Source: Candidatus Krumholzibacteriota bacterium
GTDB lineage: Bacteria > Krumholzibacteriota > Krumholzibacteriia > JAJRXK01
Length of the DNA: 64,000 nucleotides
NCBI GenBank assembly: GCA_029262065.1
Contig: JAJDAC010000016.1
Location: 62,001-126,000, forward strand
Direction of reading: 5' to 3'
The notes below the pieces were generated by a model that was given only the letters and a program-made list of their open reading frames with translations, was not told where the DNA came from and made no database searches. A program made the position numbers and the translations under genes. This document shows, in pieces, positions 28,063-37,732 of this stretch (position 1 is the first letter of the stretch; each line of letters begins with the position of its first letter).

Positions 28063-28623
28063 ATGATTCGATCCACCACCATCTTGGGGCTCACGCGCAA
28101 TGGCGTGACCTGCATGGGCGGCGATGGACAAGTTACATTCGGTCAGATCCAGATGAAGCGCGGCGCCCGCAAAGTGCGTTCCATGTACAACGAAAAGGTG
28201 CTGGCCGGTTTCGCGGGCTCGGCCGCCGACGCCTTCACACTCTTCAGCAAGTTCGAAGGGCATCTCGAGGCGCTCGAAGGCAATCTGGCCCGCGCGGCAG
28301 TGGAGATGGCCAAGGAGTGGCGCAGCGACCGCGTCCTGCGACGCCTCGATGCGTTGCTGGCGGTCATCGATCCCAATCAGGGCTACGTCTTGTCGGGGCA
28401 GGGCGACGTGATCCAACCCGACGACGGAATTCTGTCGATCGGTTCGGGAAGTGCCTACGCGACGGCGGCGGCGCGCGCGTTGGTGCGCCACAGCCAGCTC
28501 GATACAAAGACCATTTGCGAGCAATCGTTGACGATCGCCTCTGAGATCTGCATCTACACCAATGACAACCTCGAGATCCTTACGCTCGACGCGGAGACGG
28601 CCGACGGGAGTGGTATCGCGTGA
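28063..28623 (+). CDS. hslV: ATP-dependent protease peptidase subunit HslV
   Basis: The protein has 186 residues from ATG 28063. After a short propeptide (MIRS) the mature enzyme should begin at the catalytic Thr of [10 protein letters not shown], the threonine-protease nucleophile. Other features are [15 protein letters not shown] and the [12 protein letters not shown] segment, with [14 protein letters not shown] near residue 130. HslV forms a double hexamer capped by the HslU unfoldase and degrades misfolded or regulatory proteins in the cytoplasm. Its stop overlaps the start of hslU (GTGA), so the subunits are coupled. The length is normal. Confidence 0.97.
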
Positions 28624-29984
28624 GTGAGAACCGAACGGAAGTGGCCCCCCGCGATCTGACCCCTCGCATGATCGTGAGTGAGTTGGACCGCTACATCGTC
28701 GGCCAGTCCGACGCCAAGCGCGCCGTGGCCATAGCGTTGAGGAACCGCTGGCGACGTATGGAGGTTACCGGCGACCTACGCGACGAGATCATTCCCAACA
28801 ACATCATCATGATCGGACCCACCGGGGTGGGAAAGACCGAGATCGCGCGACGGCTGGCCCGCCTGGCCGGCTCCCCGTTCGTGAAGGTCGAAGCCACGAA
28901 GTTCACCGAGCGCGGTTACGTGGGGCGAGACGTCGAGTCCATGATCCGCGACCTGGTGGAGGCGTCGGTAAAGATGGTGCGCGAGGAGCTGGCGGCCGAG
29001 GTCGAAGGTGTGGCCGCGCAAGCGGTGGAAGAAGCGCTGCTCGATCTTTTGCTGCCGCCGCTGCGTGATACCGGCGAGGACACCGCGGCCCGGTACACGC
29101 GAAGCCGTGAGGCGTTGCGGGACCAGTTGCGGCGACGCGAGCTGGAAGAACGAACCGTGACGATCGAGGCCACCGTACGTGGCGGCCCGATGATCGACAT
29201 CATGCAATCGGGCGGTGATGAACTGGGGGCGGGCCTGGGCGAGGCGCTGAAGAACATGCTTCCCAGCCGCAAGAAGGAGCGCAGTGTATCGCTGCGCCAA
29301 GCGCGGGAGATCCTGCTCCAGGATGAGCTGGACCGAAGGATCGATCAGGATCGGGTGGCCACCGAGGCGTTGGCCCGGGCCGAAACCAGTGGCATCGTGT
29401 TTCTGGATGAGATCGACAAGGTGGCCAGCCGTGGCGAGATGCACGGAGCCGACGTGAGCCGCGAGGGCGTGCAGCGAGACCTGCTGCCCATCGTCGAAGG
29501 CGCGGCCGTGCAAACCAAGTACGGGCCCTTGAAAACCGACCACATCCTATTCGTGGCGGCGGGCGCGTTCCACATGAGCAAGCCCAGCGATCTGATTCCC
29601 GAGCTGCAGGGTCGCTTTCCCATTCGGGTCGAGCTGAAATCATTGACCGAGGCGGACTTCGTGCGCATTCTCGCCGAGCCGGAAACGTCTCTGCCCAAGC
29701 AGTACCAGGCGTTGTTGGCCACGGAGAATTGCACGCTGGAGTTCACCGAAGACGGATTCGAAGAGTTGGCCCGTATTGCGCACGACGTGAATACGCGGCA
29801 GGAGAACATCGGAGCAAGACGTCTTCATACCATCTTGACCACCCTACTCGACGATATGTTGTTCGAACTGCCACCAGAAGGCGATGAAAGACCAGCCACG
29901 CATGTGCGCGTCGATGGCGAATTCGTGCGGGAGAAACTGGGCGACCTTGTGAAGGACGAGGACCTGAGCCGCTACATACTGTAG
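28620..29984 (+). CDS. hslU: ATP-dependent protease ATPase subunit HslU
   Basis: A 454-residue AAA+ unfoldase from GTG 28620. It begins with [17 protein letters not shown], characteristic of HslU/ClpX. Walker A is GPTGVGKTE, the pore motif is in [10 protein letters not shown], the inserted I-domain spans about residues 110-230, and Walker B is VFLDEIDK. The sensor/arm region contains [14 protein letters not shown], and the C-terminal tail LSRYIL would insert into HslV to activate it. It unfolds substrates and feeds them to HslV. No heat-shock operator was recognised upstream. The following 64 bases hold no clear terminator. Confidence 0.97.
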
Positions 29985-30048: not shown

Positions 30049-31230
30049 GTGAGCGTGCGCGCGTTGTTGGTGGTTATAGCGGCGGTGGCGGTCGCGGCGT
30101 GCGCCGAGGTCGCCCGGCCTCCGGGTGGTCCGGTCGACCGAACGCCGCCCACGGCCACCGCGGCCTCGCCTGGCAGTCTGGCCACCTCCGTGGATGCGAG
30201 GGCGGCTATCTCGTTCGTGCTGTCCGAGAAGGTCGATCGGCGCAGCGCGGCGCGAGCGCTCACGGTGATTCCGCCGGTCGAACTCAAGTCCCCCAAATTG
30301 GATGGCCTGGGGCTCGAGTATCGGCCGAGGGAAGCGTGGCCCCCCGATACCGTCGTGGTCTGGACGTTGGAAACCAGTTTGAAGGACAAGCACGGGGTGA
30401 CCCTGGAGGAACGCCTCACGGGCGTCTTCACACGCGGCGCGACACTGCCCACGGGACGTATCGAGGGCAGCGCCAGGGTGCTGGGTGGGAGCGTCGAAGG
30501 CCCCCCAGAATCGACCATCGGAGGCGCCGACCCCAAGCCAGCCGGTGGTGGGGCGGCAAAGCCCTCGGGCGACCTTTCGACGCTTCGCGTGAATCTCAGC
30601 TTACCCGCGCCCGAGGGTCAGCGCCGCCGGCCGCTTTGGCGTTGGGCGAACGGCGATGCCGTGGGCCGATTTCGTCTGGATTGGTTGCGGGTTCCCTCGG
30701 GTCCATACCATCTCGAGGCCTTCCTCGACGGCAATGGAGATGGAAGCAGGGACGAGCGTGAGGCCGTGGCCACGGTGGACAGCTTGTTTCTGGCCGCGGG
30801 GGACAGTACTTTGATATTGGACGGGTTGGAGCTGGTGGACCTAGAAGGTCCGGTGGACCTGCTGATCTGCGTGCCGGTGGAAACCCCGGACTCGCTGGTG
30901 GTGCGGGTGTTCGTGGCTCCCGAATCGGGTTCGGAGAGCGTGGCCGTGGCACGATTGGATTCGACGGGCTGCGTGGTGGAGTCGGTGGTTCCGGGTTCCT
31001 ACCGAGTGGGCGCGTGGCTCGACGTCGATGGCGACGGTCGATTCTCGCCCGACTCGCTGGGCATCAGCGAGCCGTTCGCTACGCCCCTGAATTGGAAAGC
31101 GCTGCCCGCCCGACCCGACAGCCTTGTGCTTGGCGCTCCCCTGACCACCTCGTCGTGGGCCGAGCTGGACACCCTGCGCCTCCCCCCGGTGCCGCGGGAC
31201 TTGTTTTCCGCAGGTACGGACCCACCATGA
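30049..31230 (+). CDS. Lipoprotein with bacterial Ig-like (Big_5-type) domain
   Basis: A 393-residue predicted lipoprotein from GTG 30049 (a second GTG at 30055 is possible). The lipobox VAAC puts the lipidated Cys at residue 18. Residues about 25-130 resemble a Big_5-type Ig-like domain: DRTPPTATAASPGS, then ISFVLSEKVDR and VVWTLETSLKDKHG. Downstream is a Gly/Pro-rich linker and beta-rich repeats with FLDGNGDGSRDEREA and WLDVDGDGRFSPD, which look like Asp-rich calcium-binding loops. Such proteins are common surface lipoproteins in FCB bacteria. Function is unknown. It overlaps the dapF-like start (ATGA) and heads a three-gene unit. Confidence 0.8.
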   Translation: MSVRALLVVIAAVAVAACAEVARPPGGPVDRTPPTATAASPGSLATSVDARAAISFVLSEKVDRRSAARALTVIPPVELKSPKLDGLGLEYRPREAWPPDTVVVWTLETSLKDKHGVTLEERLTGVFTRGATLPTGRIEGSARVLGGSVEGPPESTIGGADPKPAGGGAAKPSGDLSTLRVNLSLPAPEGQRRRPLWRWANGDAVGRFRLDWLRVPSGPYHLEAFLDGNGDGSRDEREAVATVDSLFLAAGDSTLILDGLELVDLEGPVDLLICVPVETPDSLVVRVFVAPESGSESVAVARLDSTGCVVESVVPGSYRVGAWLDVDGDGRFSPDSLGISEPFATPLNWKALPARPDSLVLGAPLTTSSWAELDTLRLPPVPRDLFSAGTDPP

Positions 31231-32048
31231 CGCACATCGACTCGCCGTTGTCTTTCGCCAAAATGAACGGGGCCGCCAACGACTTCGTGCTGATAACGGG
31301 GGCGCCGCCGGTTGAACCGGAAGTCGGCGAACTGGTGCGTAGGCTTTGTCATCGACGGCGCGGTATCGGCGGCGACGGAGTGCTCTTCATGGAGCGCCTG
31401 CACGGCTTTGCTGACGATGTGTTCCACATGCATTTCTACAACTGCGATGGCGGTCGCGCGCAACTCTGCTTGAATGGCGCGCGCTGCTGCGTTCGACGGG
31501 CGGTTCAGCTGGGGTGGGCGGAGGGCCGCTTCTCTTTCCGGACCGATGTCGGCAGCATCGAGGGCGAACTCGTCGACGCGAACCAGGTGGCCCTGTGGGT
31601 CCAACCTCCCGAGCGTCCCATGGAGAGCATCCAGTTGCCGCCCAATCCCTGGGCTTCCGTGGGTCATCCGGTCTTCACCGGCGACGAGCATCTGGTCATC
31701 GAGGTGTCGGCCGAAGCACTGCGGTCCATGGATCTGGTACAGGCCGCGCGACCGCTTCGCGAGTGGACGGGCGCCTTCGCGCGCGGAAACAACGTTCACT
31801 TCGTGCATCGCGACGGGCGGGAGTGGACCATCCGCACATACGAACGCGGCGTCGAGGCCGAGACCTGGGCCTCAGGCAGTGGCTGTATGTCAGCGGTGGC
31901 CGCGCTGGGCACCGACGGCGAGGAAATTCGCCTTCGTACCCACGGCGGCGACGAAATTCGAATCGCCCGTCAGCCTGGACGCTGGCAAATGATCGGGCCC
32001 ACCCAGTTGGCGTGCGAAGGCCAGGCGCCGGGTGGAGGTATTCAATGA
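31227..32048 (+). CDS. dapF: Diaminopimelate epimerase-like protein, one catalytic Cys replaced
   Basis: The protein has 273 residues from ATG 31227, overlapping the lipoprotein stop. DapF interconverts LL- and meso-diaminopimelate for lysine and peptidoglycan using two cysteines. Family features are the start FAKMNGAANDFV, the first Cys site LCLNGARC (Cys81; the usual CGNG is CLNG), GNNVHFVH and TYERGVEAETWASGSGC. In the last motif the second catalytic Cys (usual ACGSG or ACGTG) is Ser216, with a Cys four residues later at 220. The fold is clearly DapF-like, but epimerase activity is uncertain. No lysine-pathway gene is adjacent. It overlaps the next gene by ATGA. Confidence 0.82.
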   Translation: MTHIDSPLSFAKMNGAANDFVLITGAPPVEPEVGELVRRLCHRRRGIGGDGVLFMERLHGFADDVFHMHFYNCDGGRAQLCLNGARCCVRRAVQLGWAEGRFSFRTDVGSIEGELVDANQVALWVQPPERPMESIQLPPNPWASVGHPVFTGDEHLVIEVSAEALRSMDLVQAARPLREWTGAFARGNNVHFVHRDGREWTIRTYERGVEAETWASGSGCMSAVAALGTDGEEIRLRTHGGDEIRIARQPGRWQMIGPTQLACEGQAPGGGIQ

Positions 32049-34867
32049 CCGGGTCGCGCGGGGTGTGTGCGGTGCTCGTGGCGATCCTGGCGTTCATGGC
32101 AGCTGGCGATGCGGGCGCCCAGATCCGTTACGGCAAGAACAAGGTCGTGTACGCCGACCGCGAGTGGCAGGTATTCGAGGAAGGGCAGGTACACCTGTAC
32201 TTCTACGAAGAAGAGGAGGATCTGGCGCGCCAGACCCTGGCCATGGCCGTCGACGCCTACGCAGACTTCGTCGAGTACTTCGGGTTCGAATTCGAAGAAC
32301 CCATTCCCATCATTCTCTACGGCACGCATCACGACTTCAAGCAGACCCATGTGACGCCGGGGTTCGTAAGCGACGGTACGGCGGGTTTCACGGAGTTTGC
32401 CAAGGGCCGCATTGCGATCCGGGCCACCGGCAACTACGGCGACCTCCTGCACCTGGTGCGCCACGAGATGGTCCACGCGTTCATGCTGTCGGAGCTCGCC
32501 AAGGTCATGAACGACCACGGCATCTACGACTACGCCGGACCGCCATTGTGGTTCATCGAAGGCTTGGCGGAAAACATAGCCAACCCGAAGGCCAACGCGC
32601 AGGCCCATATGTTCCTGCGCGACTCGGTCCTGAACGATCGGCTTCTGCCCATCCCCGAGATGTGGCGCATCCGCGGCAGCTTTCTGATGTACAAGATGGG
32701 CGAATCGATCGTGGGTTTCCTACGCGACCAGTACGGCGATCATGTGCCGGCATTGCTCATCGACCATTGGTGGTTGGGACGAGGCTTCGAAGATCTTCTG
32801 CAGCTCGAGTTGGGGCTGACGCTGCAGGAGCTGAGCGATCGTTGGGTCGCCTATTTGAAACGCCGGTACTTCCCTGAACTGTTGGTACGGCGATCGCCCG
32901 CCGAGAGTGGTGATCCCGTGGTAAAGAAACCACAGGTCGAGTTGGCGCCCACCGTGGTCAGCAACGAGAACGACGAGTTGGAACTGGTGGCGCTGAGTTA
33001 CCGGGGTGGAACGCTCGGGTTGTGGCGCATACGAACCAACGCGGACCACGAAGAGAGCTTTCATCAGTTGATCGAAAGCGCGCGCACGGCGCGCTTTGAA
33101 ACGTTACCGTCGTTTCGTAGTCGATTGGATACCTGGGGTGGGCAGCGATTGACGTTCGTGGCCAAGAGCGGCGGTCAGGACGCGCTGTACATCTATGATC
33201 TGATCGACGAGAAGATAGAGAACTCCTTTTCGTTTCCCAATCTGCGCGAGATCTCCAGTCCCACATTCTCACCCGACGGCAACATCGTGGCCTTCAGTGC
33301 ATTGAGCGCCGAGGGCTACAGCGATCTGTACGTGGTCGAACTGGATTCGCGCCGACTGCGACGGATTACCCACGACCTGTACCATGACATCCATCCCGAC
33401 TGGCATCCCGAACGCGCTGAACTGGTATTCGCCTCCGACCGCCACAGTTACGAACAAGGCACCCACGACCTCTACCGGCTGGAGCTCGCCGCGGGGGCAC
33501 GTCCGCAACCCATGGTGCGCACGAAAGCCGATGAGACCGAGCCGGTTTGGTCCCCCGATGGCGAGTCGGTTCTCTATGTGAGCACGTCTTCTGATGCGCG
33601 CAATCTCCACGTCCTGAGCGGTGGCAAGACCCACCAGATCACCAACCTGACCGGCGGCACGTTCTTTCCCGACTGGATCAAGGCTCCTTCTCCGGACGAG
33701 CCCGGAGAGATCGTGGCCTCGGTGTTTCATCAGGGGACGTTTCATCTCTACCGGTTTCCGGTGCAACTGGATGCGCGTGGTGCATCGGCGCCGGTAACCG
33801 CGGCGAGCGCTTTGGTCGAGGCCGAGGCCCAGCCCGAGGTAGCCCGTTTGGGACGCAACGCGGAAGCCCGCAAGTACAACGTGAGTCTGGGGCTGGATTT
33901 CGTCCAGACGGTAGCCGTGGTGGACCCCGACCTGCCCTACAGTTCTGGAGCCAGTTTGGGCTTCAGTGATTTGTTGGGAGAACACCAGCTGTCTGTTTCG
34001 GTGAGCAACAGCAGCAACGAATTCAACTTGAAAGACATGAACGTCGGCGTGGGGTACTCCAACTTCTCGCGGCGATGGAACCGGCATCTGGGCATGTTCC
34101 GTTTCAACACCCTGCAGAATCTGAACAGCCTCCGCCCGGTGGCACGGGAGGAGCGGCGCACGGGCGTTTTCGCCGGCCTCACCTATCCGTTTTCCACGTT
34201 CAAGCGGGTGGAGTTCAGCACGGTGATGCGCTACCTCGAGCGCAACGAGCAGGCGCAGGCGGTTATTGGCAAGGCCGGTAGTAGTTGGTTGTGGAGTGCA
34301 TTCGCGAGCTATGTGTATGACAACTCGCTCTGGACCTGGCAAGGGCCGTTGCGCGGAAAGCGGTACGCGTTCACGGTGGGACAGACGTTCGACTTGCTGG
34401 GACGTGGTTTCGATCGACAGACGGCGCAGCTCGACTACCGTCACTACCTCGAACTCTGGCGCCAATCGTCCATCGCCCTGCGCTGGAACCAGCGCCACAG
34501 CTTCGGCAGCGATACCTCGATTTTCTACGTCGGCGGGCCCAACGATTTGCGGGGTTACGACTGGTTCGAATTCTTCGGAGATCAGATCTATCTTGGCAAC
34601 CTGGAGCTACGCGTGCCACTGATCGACCATCTGTTGCTGCGATTTCCGTTCGGGCGATTCGACGTTCCCAATATCCGTGGCGCCGCGTTCTTCGACGTCG
34701 CCAACGTGGAGGGGCCGTTTGACACCGGCTGGATCGGCAGTTTCGGCTACAGTTTCTACCTGACGCTGTTTCCCCCGTTGGTCGTGCGGATGGACGTGGT
34801 CAAGACCCACGACTTCGACGAGGTCGAAGCGTGGGACGTGGATTGGAACCTCAGTTTCCTGTTCTGA
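32045..34867 (+). CDS. Peptidase MA-like / beta-propeller / outer-membrane barrel protein
   Basis: A 940-residue exported protein with a signal peptide (about 1-25, ending DAGAQ). Residues 30-290 resemble the peptidase MA (gluzincin) family: HEMVH at 140-144 with His140, Glu141 and His144, and the third ligand Glu172 in WFIEGLAENIA. Residues about 300-600 contain WD40/TolB-like propeller blades such as SPTFSPDGNIVAFSA, HPDWHPERAELVFASDR and EPVWSPDGESVLYVS. The last 300 residues look like a BamA/surface-antigen barrel (GGPNDLRGYDWFEF) and end in Phe (NLSFLF), as outer-membrane barrels do. This combination suggests a cell-surface or periplasmic protease anchored by its own barrel. The substrate is unknown. 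Confidence 0.85.
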   Translation: MTGSRGVCAVLVAILAFMAAGDAGAQIRYGKNKVVYADREWQVFEEGQVHLYFYEEEEDLARQTLAMAVDAYADFVEYFGFEFEEPIPIILYGTHHDFKQTHVTPGFVSDGTAGFTEFAKGRIAIRATGNYGDLLHLVRHEMVHAFMLSELAKVMNDHGIYDYAGPPLWFIEGLAENIANPKANAQAHMFLRDSVLNDRLLPIPEMWRIRGSFLMYKMGESIVGFLRDQYGDHVPALLIDHWWLGRGFEDLLQLELGLTLQELSDRWVAYLKRRYFPELLVRRSPAESGDPVVKKPQVELAPTVVSNENDELELVALSYRGGTLGLWRIRTNADHEESFHQLIESARTARFETLPSFRSRLDTWGGQRLTFVAKSGGQDALYIYDLIDEKIENSFSFPNLREISSPTFSPDGNIVAFSALSAEGYSDLYVVELDSRRLRRITHDLYHDIHPDWHPERAELVFASDRHSYEQGTHDLYRLELAAGARPQPMVRTKADETEPVWSPDGESVLYVSTSSDARNLHVLSGGKTHQITNLTGGTFFPDWIKAPSPDEPGEIVASVFHQGTFHLYRFPVQLDARGASAPVTAASALVEAEAQPEVARLGRNAEARKYNVSLGLDFVQTVAVVDPDLPYSSGASLGFSDLLGEHQLSVSVSNSSNEFNLKDMNVGVGYSNFSRRWNRHLGMFRFNTLQNLNSLRPVAREERRTGVFAGLTYPFSTFKRVEFSTVMRYLERNEQAQAVIGKAGSSWLWSAFASYVYDNSLWTWQGPLRGKRYAFTVGQTFDLLGRGFDRQTAQLDYRHYLELWRQSSIALRWNQRHSFGSDTSIFYVGGPNDLRGYDWFEFFGDQIYLGNLELRVPLIDHLLLRFPFGRFDVPNIRGAAFFDVANVEGPFDTGWIGSFGYSFYLTLFPPLVVRMDVVKTHDFDEVEAWDVDWNLSFLF

Positions 34868-35068
34868 CCACGCGCGCGCATCGATACCAAACTTCGGCGT
34901 GACCCCTTGCGCCACGACCGCCCGATTCAACATCTTGCCTGCATGATGCGCAGCGCCTCCCGCGCTCGTGTTGTCTCCTGCCTCATCGGGAAGCCCGGTC
35001 TTTTTGCCGTGCTTTCCGCCGCGTCGCTCGCACCGGCATCCGTCGGTCCCATTGGCGGAGGAGGCAGA

Positions 35069-37732
35069 ATGTTCGCGTTCTGGTCGCGATCAGGATTCCC
35101 CCGGCTGGTCCTTTGGCTGGCCCTGTCCCATGCGGTCGCTGCGTCGGCCGCCAGCGAACGCATTCCCCGGGCGGCTGCGCCCAAGGACATGGTGTTCGAT
35201 GAGTTCGTCCACAACGCGGGCGAGCTCCAGATGAACATCACCAACTGGGGACTGTTGGGTTCGTATCCCAACTCGCCGGCTTTCTTTGCCGATCAACCCT
35301 CGGCCATGTGGCCGGCCGGTAGCGGCGTCGAGTACCTGTTCGCGGCGGGGCTGTGGGTTGGTGCCGTCCAGAATGGGGTTCCGTTGGTAACCACGTCGCA
35401 GTTCGAGGCGGAGCTGCGGCCAAACCCCGAAGACCCCCTGGATACCATCTGGGCCGCCGCCCAGGGACAGGCCAATGGCGCTCGGTATCCGGATCCCGGC
35501 GAGGACGACGACGGGGACGGATCTGTCAACGAAGACCCCTTGAACGGTCTGGACGACGACGGCGACGGTGCCATCGACGAGGATTTCGCGGCCATCGGCA
35601 ATCAGCATTTTCGTTGCGTCATGCGAGACGATCGGCCGCTCGCGCGCGAAGACAATCCCGAACACCAACCGTTGAACATCAGCGTCGTGCAGGAGACATT
35701 CCAGTGGGAGAACGACCAGGTCGATGACTTCGTGGGCTTCCAGTTCACGCTCACCAACGTAGGCAACGCTCCCTTGCAGCAGGTGTTCGTGGGGTTCTGG
35801 GCCGACCCCGACTGCGGCCCGCGTGACGTGGATGACGTGGCGTCGGATGACCTGCTTCACTTCGAAGAAGACCCGACCTACCGGGCTCCCGACGGCAGCT
35901 CCGTGCCGCTATCGATCGCCTGCGCCTACGATGCCGACGGCGACGGCGGTCGCACGCCGGGCTGGCTGGGAATGATGTTCCTGGACCATCCCACCGATCC
36001 CACCGGTGAAAACGCGCCGGAGTTCGTACGCATTCGCAGCTTCCAGTCGTTGCAACGCAACACACCGTTTGACCGTGGCGGTGATCCCAACAACGATCCC
36101 GAACGCTATGAGTTGCTGTCGACCAATGGTATCGACAATACCCCTCCACTGTTCACGGTCGAGCGCGCCAACGATGCGCGAATCCTGTTGTCCAACGGTC
36201 CCTTCGACAACATCGAACCGGGCGAAAGCCTGACGTTTCAGATGGCCATCGTCATGGGGGAGGGCCTGGCCGGTTTGAAGGCCAACGCCGCCCAGGCCGC
36301 GCTGACTTTCTACGGTGGATACTTCGATCGAGATGGCGATTCGTCCACGGGCGTGAAGGGCCGCGAGTCCCGCGTTTGCGCGGAAGACTTTCCACCGGGC
36401 AGCGGCGTCGAGATCACCGACCTGTTTCTGGACTGCGCCGTGGATCCCGGCGACGGCGTGCTGGCGGGAGATCGGATCACCGAAGCTGATCTCGACGAGG
36501 ACGGATGCGTGTACCGCAACGGCGATTGTCCTTTCGAAACGCTGCGGTCTTCGAACGATTGCTCCCAGGACGGACCCGCCGTGGAAGTGGCCGATCTGGT
36601 GGGGTGCACCGGCGTGGGCGGGAAGGAGTTCCATGTGCCTTGGCTGGTGGGACTGGCGCCCGACCCGCCCCCGCTGCGCCTGTGGGAAACCGATGGTCGG
36701 GTTCACCTGTTCTGGAACAGTCTGAGCGAGAACCTGAAGGACATTCGCCTGCAACAGGTGGATTTCGAGTCGTACCGATTGTGGCGAGCCGACGGTTGGG
36801 AGCGGCCGTTTGGATCTTCCATTCGCAACGGGCCCGAGGCTCGACTATGGCGTTTGATTGCGGAGTATGATCGCGTCGACGCGATGTTGGTCGACAATCC
36901 CAGTACGACGACGCCGCCCGAACCATTGCCCCTGGGAGACAACACCGGACTGGACGTGGTGAGGTACCAGCCAGAGGTATTGCGGCCGGACAGCCCGCAG
37001 GCGCAGGAACTGGCCGAGCTTCGGACGTTGGTCGACGAGATCGTGGCCTGGCGCCGACCCGCGGTGAGCGTCGACCCGTCCGCGTTTCTACGCTACGTGG
37101 GATCCGACGGACGCGTGACCGACGTGGGGCATGAGTTTCCCGAGCTGGCGAACTGGGACTGCTGTTACGACCAGGCCGATACCTTGCTCATGGATGCCGT
37201 GGGGCTGGTGTTCTACGAGTTCGTCGACCTGGACGTACACAACGGTCACAACTACTTCTACTCGGTCACCGCCACGGATTTCGACGCGCGCGTTACCAGC
37301 GGCGGCTTGACGCCCATTGGCCCCGGTCTGGCCGGGGATCCGCAGAGCAATTTCCAGTTCGCGGTGCCAAAACCCAGATCGCAGAGCGAAGAGGATCGGC
37401 GCCAGGACGGCCAGAACATCTACGTGTTTCCCAACCCAGCCACGCGAGATGCCTTGGCCGAGTTTGGCCAGTTGCATCCCAACGGTGATGATCCCACCGG
37501 AGTTCGCGTGATGTTCGCGAACCTGCCCCGCGAGCAGTGCACCATCCGAATCTTCACGTTGGCCGGGGATCTCGTCGAGACGGTGGTCCACGATGGCTCT
37601 CAGGGTGACGGGGGGGCGTTCTGGAACCTGGTGTCTCGCAATGGTCAGGAGATCGTCAGCGGGATCTACCTGTACTCGGTCGAGGCGCCGGGTTTTGACC
37701 GCGTCATCGGTCGCTTCGTGGTCGTGCGCTGA
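35069..37732 (+). CDS. Large secreted protein with Ca-binding loops and C-terminal sorting-like domain
   Basis: The protein has 887 residues from ATG 35069, just after GGAGGAGG; the frame is open back to 34907. A signal peptide spans about 1-30 (ALSHAVAASA). Near residue 150 are tandem Asp-rich loops (EDDDGDGSVNEDP, LDDDGDGAIDEDF) like thrombospondin-type-3 or dockerin calcium sites. Long beta-rich regions follow. The C-terminal 85 residues (FPNPATRD, FTLAGDLVETVV, FWNLVSRNGQEIVSGIYLY, RFVVVR) match a type-A sorting or FlgD-Ig-like domain and align with the end of the M6 protease at 15042. No enzymatic domain is recognised. It is probably exported to the surface or medium. Confidence 0.8.
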   Translation: MFAFWSRSGFPRLVLWLALSHAVAASAASERIPRAAAPKDMVFDEFVHNAGELQMNITNWGLLGSYPNSPAFFADQPSAMWPAGSGVEYLFAAGLWVGAVQNGVPLVTTSQFEAELRPNPEDPLDTIWAAAQGQANGARYPDPGEDDDGDGSVNEDPLNGLDDDGDGAIDEDFAAIGNQHFRCVMRDDRPLAREDNPEHQPLNISVVQETFQWENDQVDDFVGFQFTLTNVGNAPLQQVFVGFWADPDCGPRDVDDVASDDLLHFEEDPTYRAPDGSSVPLSIACAYDADGDGGRTPGWLGMMFLDHPTDPTGENAPEFVRIRSFQSLQRNTPFDRGGDPNNDPERYELLSTNGIDNTPPLFTVERANDARILLSNGPFDNIEPGESLTFQMAIVMGEGLAGLKANAAQAALTFYGGYFDRDGDSSTGVKGRESRVCAEDFPPGSGVEITDLFLDCAVDPGDGVLAGDRITEADLDEDGCVYRNGDCPFETLRSSNDCSQDGPAVEVADLVGCTGVGGKEFHVPWLVGLAPDPPPLRLWETDGRVHLFWNSLSENLKDIRLQQVDFESYRLWRADGWERPFGSSIRNGPEARLWRLIAEYDRVDAMLVDNPSTTTPPEPLPLGDNTGLDVVRYQPEVLRPDSPQAQELAELRTLVDEIVAWRRPAVSVDPSAFLRYVGSDGRVTDVGHEFPELANWDCCYDQADTLLMDAVGLVFYEFVDLDVHNGHNYFYSVTATDFDARVTSGGLTPIGPGLAGDPQSNFQFAVPKPRSQSEEDRRQDGQNIYVFPNPATRDALAEFGQLHPNGDDPTGVRVMFANLPREQCTIRIFTLAGDLVETVVHDGSQGDGGAFWNLVSRNGQEIVSGIYLYSVEAPGFDRVIGRFVVVR

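What the first reader, a model, noticed from the sequence alone, without database searches (positions are those of the whole stretch)
31227..32048. DapF-like epimerase with a catalytic Cys replaced by Ser
Sequence: the first catalytic site keeps Cys81 but in CLNG instead of CGNG, and the second site reads ASGSGCM with Ser216 where DapF has Cys; Cys220 lies four residues later. Known: DapF uses two Cys as a base/acid pair, and replacing either usually abolishes epimerisation. Inference: the protein may be inactive, use another mechanism or have another substrate. It sits in a surface lipoprotein/protease operon and not with lysine genes.
Basis: partly seen in the sequence, partly recalled or inferred. 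Interest (0 to 1): 0.6.

Follow-up and report, generated by a model that had tools for sequence, protein, structure and literature searches.

The report
DapF-like epimerase with Cys/Ser pair
A cell-wall/lysine-type amino-acid epimerase in an uncultured bacterium really does have one of its two catalytic cysteines replaced by serine, but the same swap is fixed in most sampled Rhodobacteraceae as their apparently only such enzyme, so it is probably an active variant rather than a broken one; the odder fact is that its bacterial family has lost the pathway that normally feeds it.

Summary
Window 31227-32048 encodes an intact DapF-family protein with Cys81 in CLNG and Ser216 (TCA) in ASGSGC. It is the only DapF homologue found in this Krumholzibacteriota MAG.

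CLNG/CFNG and Cys220 are shared by all four genomes of the bacterial family. Ser216 occurs only here: the other three genomes have Cys at that site. TCA is two base changes from the relatives' TGC/TGT, so a single miscall cannot explain it.

The lipoprotein-dapF linkage is the class's ancestral dapF locus, so the neighbours do not argue against DapF. However, all four genomes lack an above-cut-off dapA, dapB and lysA, while MurE keeps the DNPR motif read as DAP-type.

Cys-to-Ser need not kill DapF. 44 of 50 sampled Rhodobacteraceae DapFs carry Ser at the same position; in the searched Ser-type genomes it is generally the only homologue, with no DAP dehydrogenase. A tree gives exactly two Cys-to-Ser events: that clade's stem and this genome.

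Best reading: an active, forward-biased epimerase (Cys81 base, Ser216 acid) acting on a DAP-like diamino-diacid not made de novo. Activity and substrate are inferred. Verdict: new variant of a known kind.

The parts
31227..32048 (+). DapF-family epimerase, 273 aa (P0001), translationally coupled to both neighbours by ATGA overlaps
   Evidence: TIGR00652 131.8 bits, above cut-off; AlphaFold pLDDT 93.4; DapF and O-ureidoserine racemase fold matches; overlaps
31467..31469 (+). Cys81, first catalytic Cys (E. coli Cys73 equivalent); the base that removes the alpha-H of L,L substrate by homology
   Evidence: alignment; L,L-aziDAP alkylates the equivalent Cys75 in Anabaena DapF (PMC12039745)
31470..31472 (+). 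Leu82 in place of the class-invariant Gly next to the catalytic Cys; Leu/Phe in all four genomes of the family
31683..31685 (+). Asp153 at the E. coli Asn157 position (Asp in this family, Val in the class)
31842..31847 (+). Glu206-Arg207, which recognise the distal amino and carboxylate groups of DAP; retained
   Evidence: role and mutants in C. glutamicum DapF (PMC5296763)
31872..31874 (+). Ser216 (TCA), replacing the second catalytic Cys (E. coli Cys217)
31884..31886 (+). Cys220, conserved in all four genomes of the family next to Ser216 or Cys216; one turn inside helix 217-227
30049..31230 (+). Big_5 (bacterial Ig-like) lipoprotein-like gene, adjacent to dapF across the class
   Evidence: Pfam PF13205; synteny
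28620..29984 (+). hslU-like AAA ATPase gene, upstream part of the conserved block
   Evidence: Pfam AAA_2; synteny
28063..28623 (+). hslV-like proteasome-type subunit
   Evidence: Pfam PF00227; synteny
32045..34867 (+). PD40/WD40-like propeller plus Omp85-like barrel protein with a weak peptidase-MA match, downstream of dapF
   Evidence: Pfam; synteny

Best explanation
This is the vertically inherited DapF of the class Krumholzibacteriia, still folded, encoded within an apparent operon and probably catalytic, with a Cys/Ser catalytic pair instead of Cys/Cys. Cys81 removes the alpha-proton of the L,L substrate and Ser216 at the helix N-terminus returns a proton from the other face, so catalysis would be slower and biased towards L,L to meso. 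Because this bacterial family has lost the genes that make L,L-DAP and lysine but keeps a MurE with the DNPR motif and a DapF with the distal-carboxylate Arg, the substrate is most likely a DAP-like diamino-diacid that is scavenged or made by another route (DAP or lanthionine), feeding the cell wall. Shown: sequence, uniqueness, synteny, missing genes, retained binding residues, independent parallel in Rhodobacteraceae. Inferred: activity, direction and substrate.
For: Intact ORF with ATGA overlaps on both sides. End-branch length is in line with its Cys-bearing relatives (0.78 against 0.54-0.77), and 53-66% of identical residues use different codons, so the protein has been kept under selection. 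Seven of eight C. glutamicum substrate residues are conserved (roles). Ser is fixed at the same site in 44 of 50 sampled Rhodobacteraceae DapFs; two such genomes have a single TIGR00652 hit, nearly all have a single hit in the protein search, and none of 31 has a DAP dehydrogenase over cut-off. The tree needs two Cys-to-Ser changes. Cys/Thr racemases acting in one direction are known or predicted (PMC8142540), and a Ser-Cys hydroxyproline epimerase exists in the related superfamily (PMC4113996). The Cys facing L,L substrate is the retained one. dapA (above cut-off), dapB and lysA are missing in 4 of 4 genomes, while murE (DNPR) and murI are present.
Against: Laboratory Cys-to-Ser mutants of the DapF-like HisR have greatly reduced turnover (PMC11602996), and C83A/C221A in C. 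glutamicum are almost dead. In Rhodobacteraceae the Ser comes with Gly220 changed to Ser/Cys, which this protein lacks, so a compensating change may be missing. The Ser is seen in a single MAG. No source of DAP or lanthionine was identified. lysA, dapB and dapA were not searched in the Ser-type Rhodobacteraceae here. The direction bias is inferred from other enzymes.
Confidence: 0.5

Rival explanations
1. Decaying or structural remnant: after the family lost dapA, dapB and lysA the enzyme became dispensable, and in this genome it has recently lost its second catalytic Cys and is inactive or nearly so.
For: Pathway genes gone; long stem branch of the family (1.2); Cys is kept in all other class members; lab Cys-to-Ser mutants are slow.
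Against: ORF intact and coupled; branch hardly longer than its Cys relatives; all other catalytic and most binding residues kept; the TCA codon needs two substitutions; Ser is maintained in the Rhodobacteraceae clade.
Confidence: 0.22
2. Substrate-shifted racemase: the whole family uses this protein on an amino acid other than DAP or lanthionine, as Fusobacterium HisR does with histidine.
For: DapF-like protein without DAP genes, as in F. nucleatum (PMC11602996); family-specific Leu/Phe82, Asp153, His191; long stem.
Against: Arg207, Glu206, Asn72 and Asn189, which bind the distal carboxylate and amine of DAP, are all kept, whereas the HisR pocket is reported to hold no basic residue. No D-amino-acid pathway is visible next to it.
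Confidence: 0.17
3. Ordinary DapF in an ordinary pathway, with DapA, DapB and LysA replaced by enzymes the family models do not recognise.
For: TIGR00652 over cut-off; MurE DNPR; G000 has one sub-cut-off dapA-like gene (174.5 bits).
Against: Three pathway genes missing in all four genomes, each 95-99% complete, while many class relatives score well for dapA and dapB; G001 and G002 have no dapA-like gene at all.
Confidence: 0.1
4. Sequencing or assembly error at the Ser codon.
For: Single MAG, no reads; three relatives have Cys.
Against: TCA differs from TGC/TGT by two adjacent bases; the rest of the ORF is clean.
Confidence: 0.03
5. DapF doubling as the cell's glutamate racemase, as in Chlamydia.
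For: DapF homologue without DAP genes; precedent PMC5885031 (listed).
Against: A MurI over cut-off is present in all four genomes; the bifunctional model NF038284 scores 64.5 against a cut-off of 350.
Confidence: 0.02

Closest known systems
Rhodobacteraceae DapF with ASGS[SC]xC motif (loci L101, L103, L143-L150 and others)
   Same: Natural Ser at the second catalytic position, Cys kept at the first; generally the only DapF homologue found; no DAP dehydrogenase in 31 such genomes
   Different: First site is CGNA rather than CLNG, Gly220 replaced by Ser/Cys, Asn157 kept; independent origin on the tree. The library searches found no paper describing it
Haemophilus influenzae DapF, C217S crystal structure (PDB 2q9j)
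   Same: Same fold and same substitution, made in the laboratory; sequence and fold match
   Different: Engineered, not natural; 28% identical; keeps CGNG and Asn157
Fusobacterium nucleatum HisR (DapF-like, in an organism without the DAP pathway)
   Same: DapF fold retained without DAP synthesis
   Different: Histidine racemase with two Cys; pocket without basic residues, whereas P0001 keeps Arg207
EcL-DER and MMP0739 aspartate/glutamate racemases (Cys/Thr pair)
   Same: One catalytic Cys replaced by a hydroxyl residue; one-way reaction reported for EcL-DER, predicted for MMP0739
   Different: Another structural group of racemases; Thr rather than Ser
Proline racemase superfamily 4HypE and t3HypD with Ser-Cys, Ser-Thr or Cys-Thr pairs
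   Same: Related fold; natural hydroxyl replacement with retained epimerase (Ser-Cys 4HypE) or dehydratase function
   Different: Different substrates; 13-17% identity in fold matches

Membership tests
DapF (diaminopimelate epimerase, TIGR00652) | Score above the curated family cut-off | tested here: met
   131.8 bits against 114.65
DapF (diaminopimelate epimerase, TIGR00652) | DapF fold | tested here: met
   AlphaFold pLDDT 93.4; Foldseek TM about 0.8 to DapFs
DapF (diaminopimelate epimerase, TIGR00652) | First catalytic Cys | tested here: met
   Cys81, although CGNG is CLNG
DapF (diaminopimelate epimerase, TIGR00652) | Second catalytic Cys | tested here: not met
   Ser216; natural Ser also in Rhodobacteraceae DapFs
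DapF (diaminopimelate epimerase, TIGR00652) | DAP-binding residues N11, N64, N75, N157, N190, E208, R209, S/T219 (E. coli numbering) | tested here: inconclusive
   Seven of eight kept; N157 is Asp here and Val in the class
DapF (diaminopimelate epimerase, TIGR00652) | Member of a complete DAP/lysine pathway | tested here: not met
   dapB and lysA not found over cut-off and no dapA over cut-off in four genomes; MurE DNPR present
DapF (diaminopimelate epimerase, TIGR00652) | Epimerises L,L-DAP | not testable with these tools
   Needs purified protein
Histidine racemase HisR/CntK | Substrate pocket without basic residues | tested here: not met
   Arg207 kept; HisR pocket described
Bifunctional DapF/glutamate racemase (NF038284) | Score above the curated cut-off; no separate MurI | tested here: not met
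   64.5 against 350; MurI present
O-ureidoserine racemase (DcsC) | O-ureidoserine substrate | not testable with these tools
   Best fold match 7vdy, 28% identity; substrate cannot be assayed here

The most novel reading that the evidence does not exclude
A Cys/Ser DapF that works as a one-way epimerase on a DAP substitute such as lanthionine, in a Krumholzibacteriota family that has abandoned DAP and lysine synthesis; together with the Rhodobacteraceae clade this would define a second, natural catalytic design of DapF that arose at least twice.
Probability: 0.15. Interest if true: 0.68.

Novelty: new variant of a known kind. Interest (0 to 1): 0.45.

Why it matters
DapF is the textbook two-thiol epimerase and an antibacterial target whose inhibitors include covalent Cys-reactive compounds. 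A large bacterial family whose apparently only DapF has Ser at the second site, plus this independent case, makes it directly testable whether DapF needs two thiols, and whether a Cys/Ser pair gives a one-way enzyme. Aziridine-DAP inhibitors that alkylate the second Cys should fail on such enzymes. The second point, a DapF and a DNPR-type MurE in a family without dapA (above cut-off), dapB or lysA, raises the question of what diamino acid these bacteria put in their walls.

Tried and rejected
Glutamate racemase role: rejected, MurI present. Bypass by DAP dehydrogenase: only sub-cut-off partial hits in this family and in Ser-type Rhodobacteraceae. A second dapF hidden in the genome: none; the extra G000 hit scores 10.7 bits. 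The lysA-like hit in G000 is below cut-off (228.9 against 297.9) and sits beside an arginine-deiminase-like gene (reading it as an ornithine-type decarboxylase is mine). The DapB_N hit in G000 is the N-terminus of a GAPDH-like protein. The first genome-contig scan with the single protein found no relatives. Named-species confirmation of the Rhodobacteraceae Ser-type through plasmid records found no Rhodobacteraceae among the organisms listed, only Ser-type copies on a Burkholderia and a Sphingomonas replicon. The Rhodobacter sphaeroides essential-gene paper does not mention dapF or lysine in its main text.

Full report
Observation. The ORF at 31227-32048 is intact, 273 codons, with ATGA overlaps to the gene before and after it. 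It is DapF by NCBIfam (131.8 bits, cut-off 114.65) and Pfam. AlphaFold gives a confident model (pLDDT 93.4) that matches O-ureidoserine racemase and many DapFs. Cys81 sits in CLNG, Ser216 replaces the second catalytic Cys and Cys220 follows. The stated coordinates are right.

Where the odd features come from. The window lies in contig C16 of a 5.77 Mb assembly, 95.6% complete. Three genomes of the same family are held; two of them carry contigs of the same lengths as named Krumholzibacteriia/Krumholzibacteriota MAG contigs. All four share CLNG or CFNG and Cys220. Only this genome has Ser216; the others have CGSGC. The Ser codon is TCA against TGC or TGT, two changes, so one miscalled base cannot create it. 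TCA is the rarest Ser codon in the neighbouring genes.

Genome and neighbourhood. No second DapF was found. trmFO, xerC, hslV, hslU, an Ig-like lipoprotein and dapF stand in the same order in all four genomes. The lipoprotein-dapF pair occurs through most of the class, including genomes where dapA and dapB follow dapF directly (coordinates). The locus is therefore the ancestral dapF site, and the absence of lysine genes beside it reflects loss in this family. dapB was not found, and lysA and dapA not above cut-off, in all four genomes, whereas many class relatives have dapA and dapB (lysA was searched only in the four). MurE is present with the DNPR motif (its reading as DAP-type is established knowledge), and MurI is present. 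Other families of the class (f4, and single genomes of f6 and f8) also lack a dapB hit, so this is a wider puzzle.

Is it still an enzyme? Of eight residues shown by mutation to matter in C. glutamicum DapF (PMC5296763), seven are kept; the eighth (Asn157 in E. coli numbering) is Asp in this family and Val in the rest of the class. The protein's end branch is similar to those of its Cys-bearing relatives (0.78 against 0.54-0.77), although the family's stem is long (1.2), which suggests a change of constraint or function before Ser216 arose. Half to two thirds of identical residues use different codons.

A natural parallel. Among the relatives fetched, two Rhodobacteraceae MAGs had Ser at the same site, each with a single TIGR00652 hit. 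A wider look at that bacterial family gave 50 sampled proteins, of which 44 have Ser, usually ASGSSSC or ASGSCxC. The first 30 were the nearest to a Ser-type query and so are biased; of 20 further ones picked down the ranking, 16 have Ser. Nearly all genomes of that search show one hit, and none of 31 Ser-type genomes has a DAP dehydrogenase over cut-off. The 169-protein tree needs only two Cys-to-Ser changes, one at the base of the Rhodobacteraceae clade and one in this genome (FastTree, with low support at some forks, and the Ser column itself was left in the alignment). A catalytic Ser kept through a radiation in the apparently only DapF argues that it works. lysA was not searched there; that these bacteria make lysine through DAP is general knowledge, and R. 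sphaeroides grows without added amino acids (PMC5513736), though the residue in that species was not established here. The literature library gave no description of this variant, which is not proof that none exists.

Mechanism. In Anabaena DapF, L,L-aziridine-DAP alkylates the first Cys and the D,L form the second (PMC12039745). By homology Cys81 is the base for L,L substrate and residue 216 the acid. Ser as acid with Cys as base would favour the L,L to meso direction. Precedents are EcL-DER, a one-way Cys/Thr racemase, and MMP0739, predicted to be one-way (PMC8142540), and a Ser-Cys hydroxyproline epimerase (PMC4113996). Against this, Cys-to-Ser mutants of HisR turn over far more slowly (PMC11602996).

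Substrate. F. nucleatum, without DAP synthesis, uses its DapF-like protein as a histidine racemase, so a shifted substrate is possible. But Arg207 and Glu206, which hold the distal end of DAP, are kept here, and the wall ligase MurE keeps DNPR. Anabaena and A. thaliana DapF turn over lanthionine as fast as DAP (PMC12039745). A DAP-like diamino-diacid, scavenged or made otherwise, is therefore the leading guess. The family-specific Leu/Phe82 beside the catalytic Cys may reshape the pocket.

Verdict. Observation confirmed; inference of inactivity weakened; inference of another substrate plausible. New variant of a known kind.

Noticed in passing
L101, L103, L143-L190 (most): Most sampled Rhodobacteraceae DapFs have Ser in place of the second catalytic Cys, together with Gly220 changed to Ser or Cys; a minority (L151, L163, L183-L186, Natronohydrobacter) keep Cys.
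   Followed up: partly
L191 (Burkholderia stagnalis plas1), L192 (Sphingomonas morindae p1): Ser-type dapF copies on extra replicons branch beside the Rhodobacteraceae Ser clade, suggesting transfer; the Sphingomonas copy lies near thiD and a PhzF-family gene.
   Followed up: no
G006, G010, G012, G014, G017, G019, G025: Further Krumholzibacteriia genomes outside the window's family also lack a dapB hit; the f4 DapFs (L037-L040) are very divergent, and G012 has two DapF homologues.
   Followed up: no
window 34907-37732: A 941-residue secreted-looking protein without any Pfam match at E 0.001; its end resembles a sorting-type C-terminal domain by eye.
   Followed up: no
H14-H18, H22, H30: About 91-97 kb plasmid records of several Enterobacteriaceae genera, and one of 426 kb from Citrobacter, carry an annotated dapF.
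   Followed up: no
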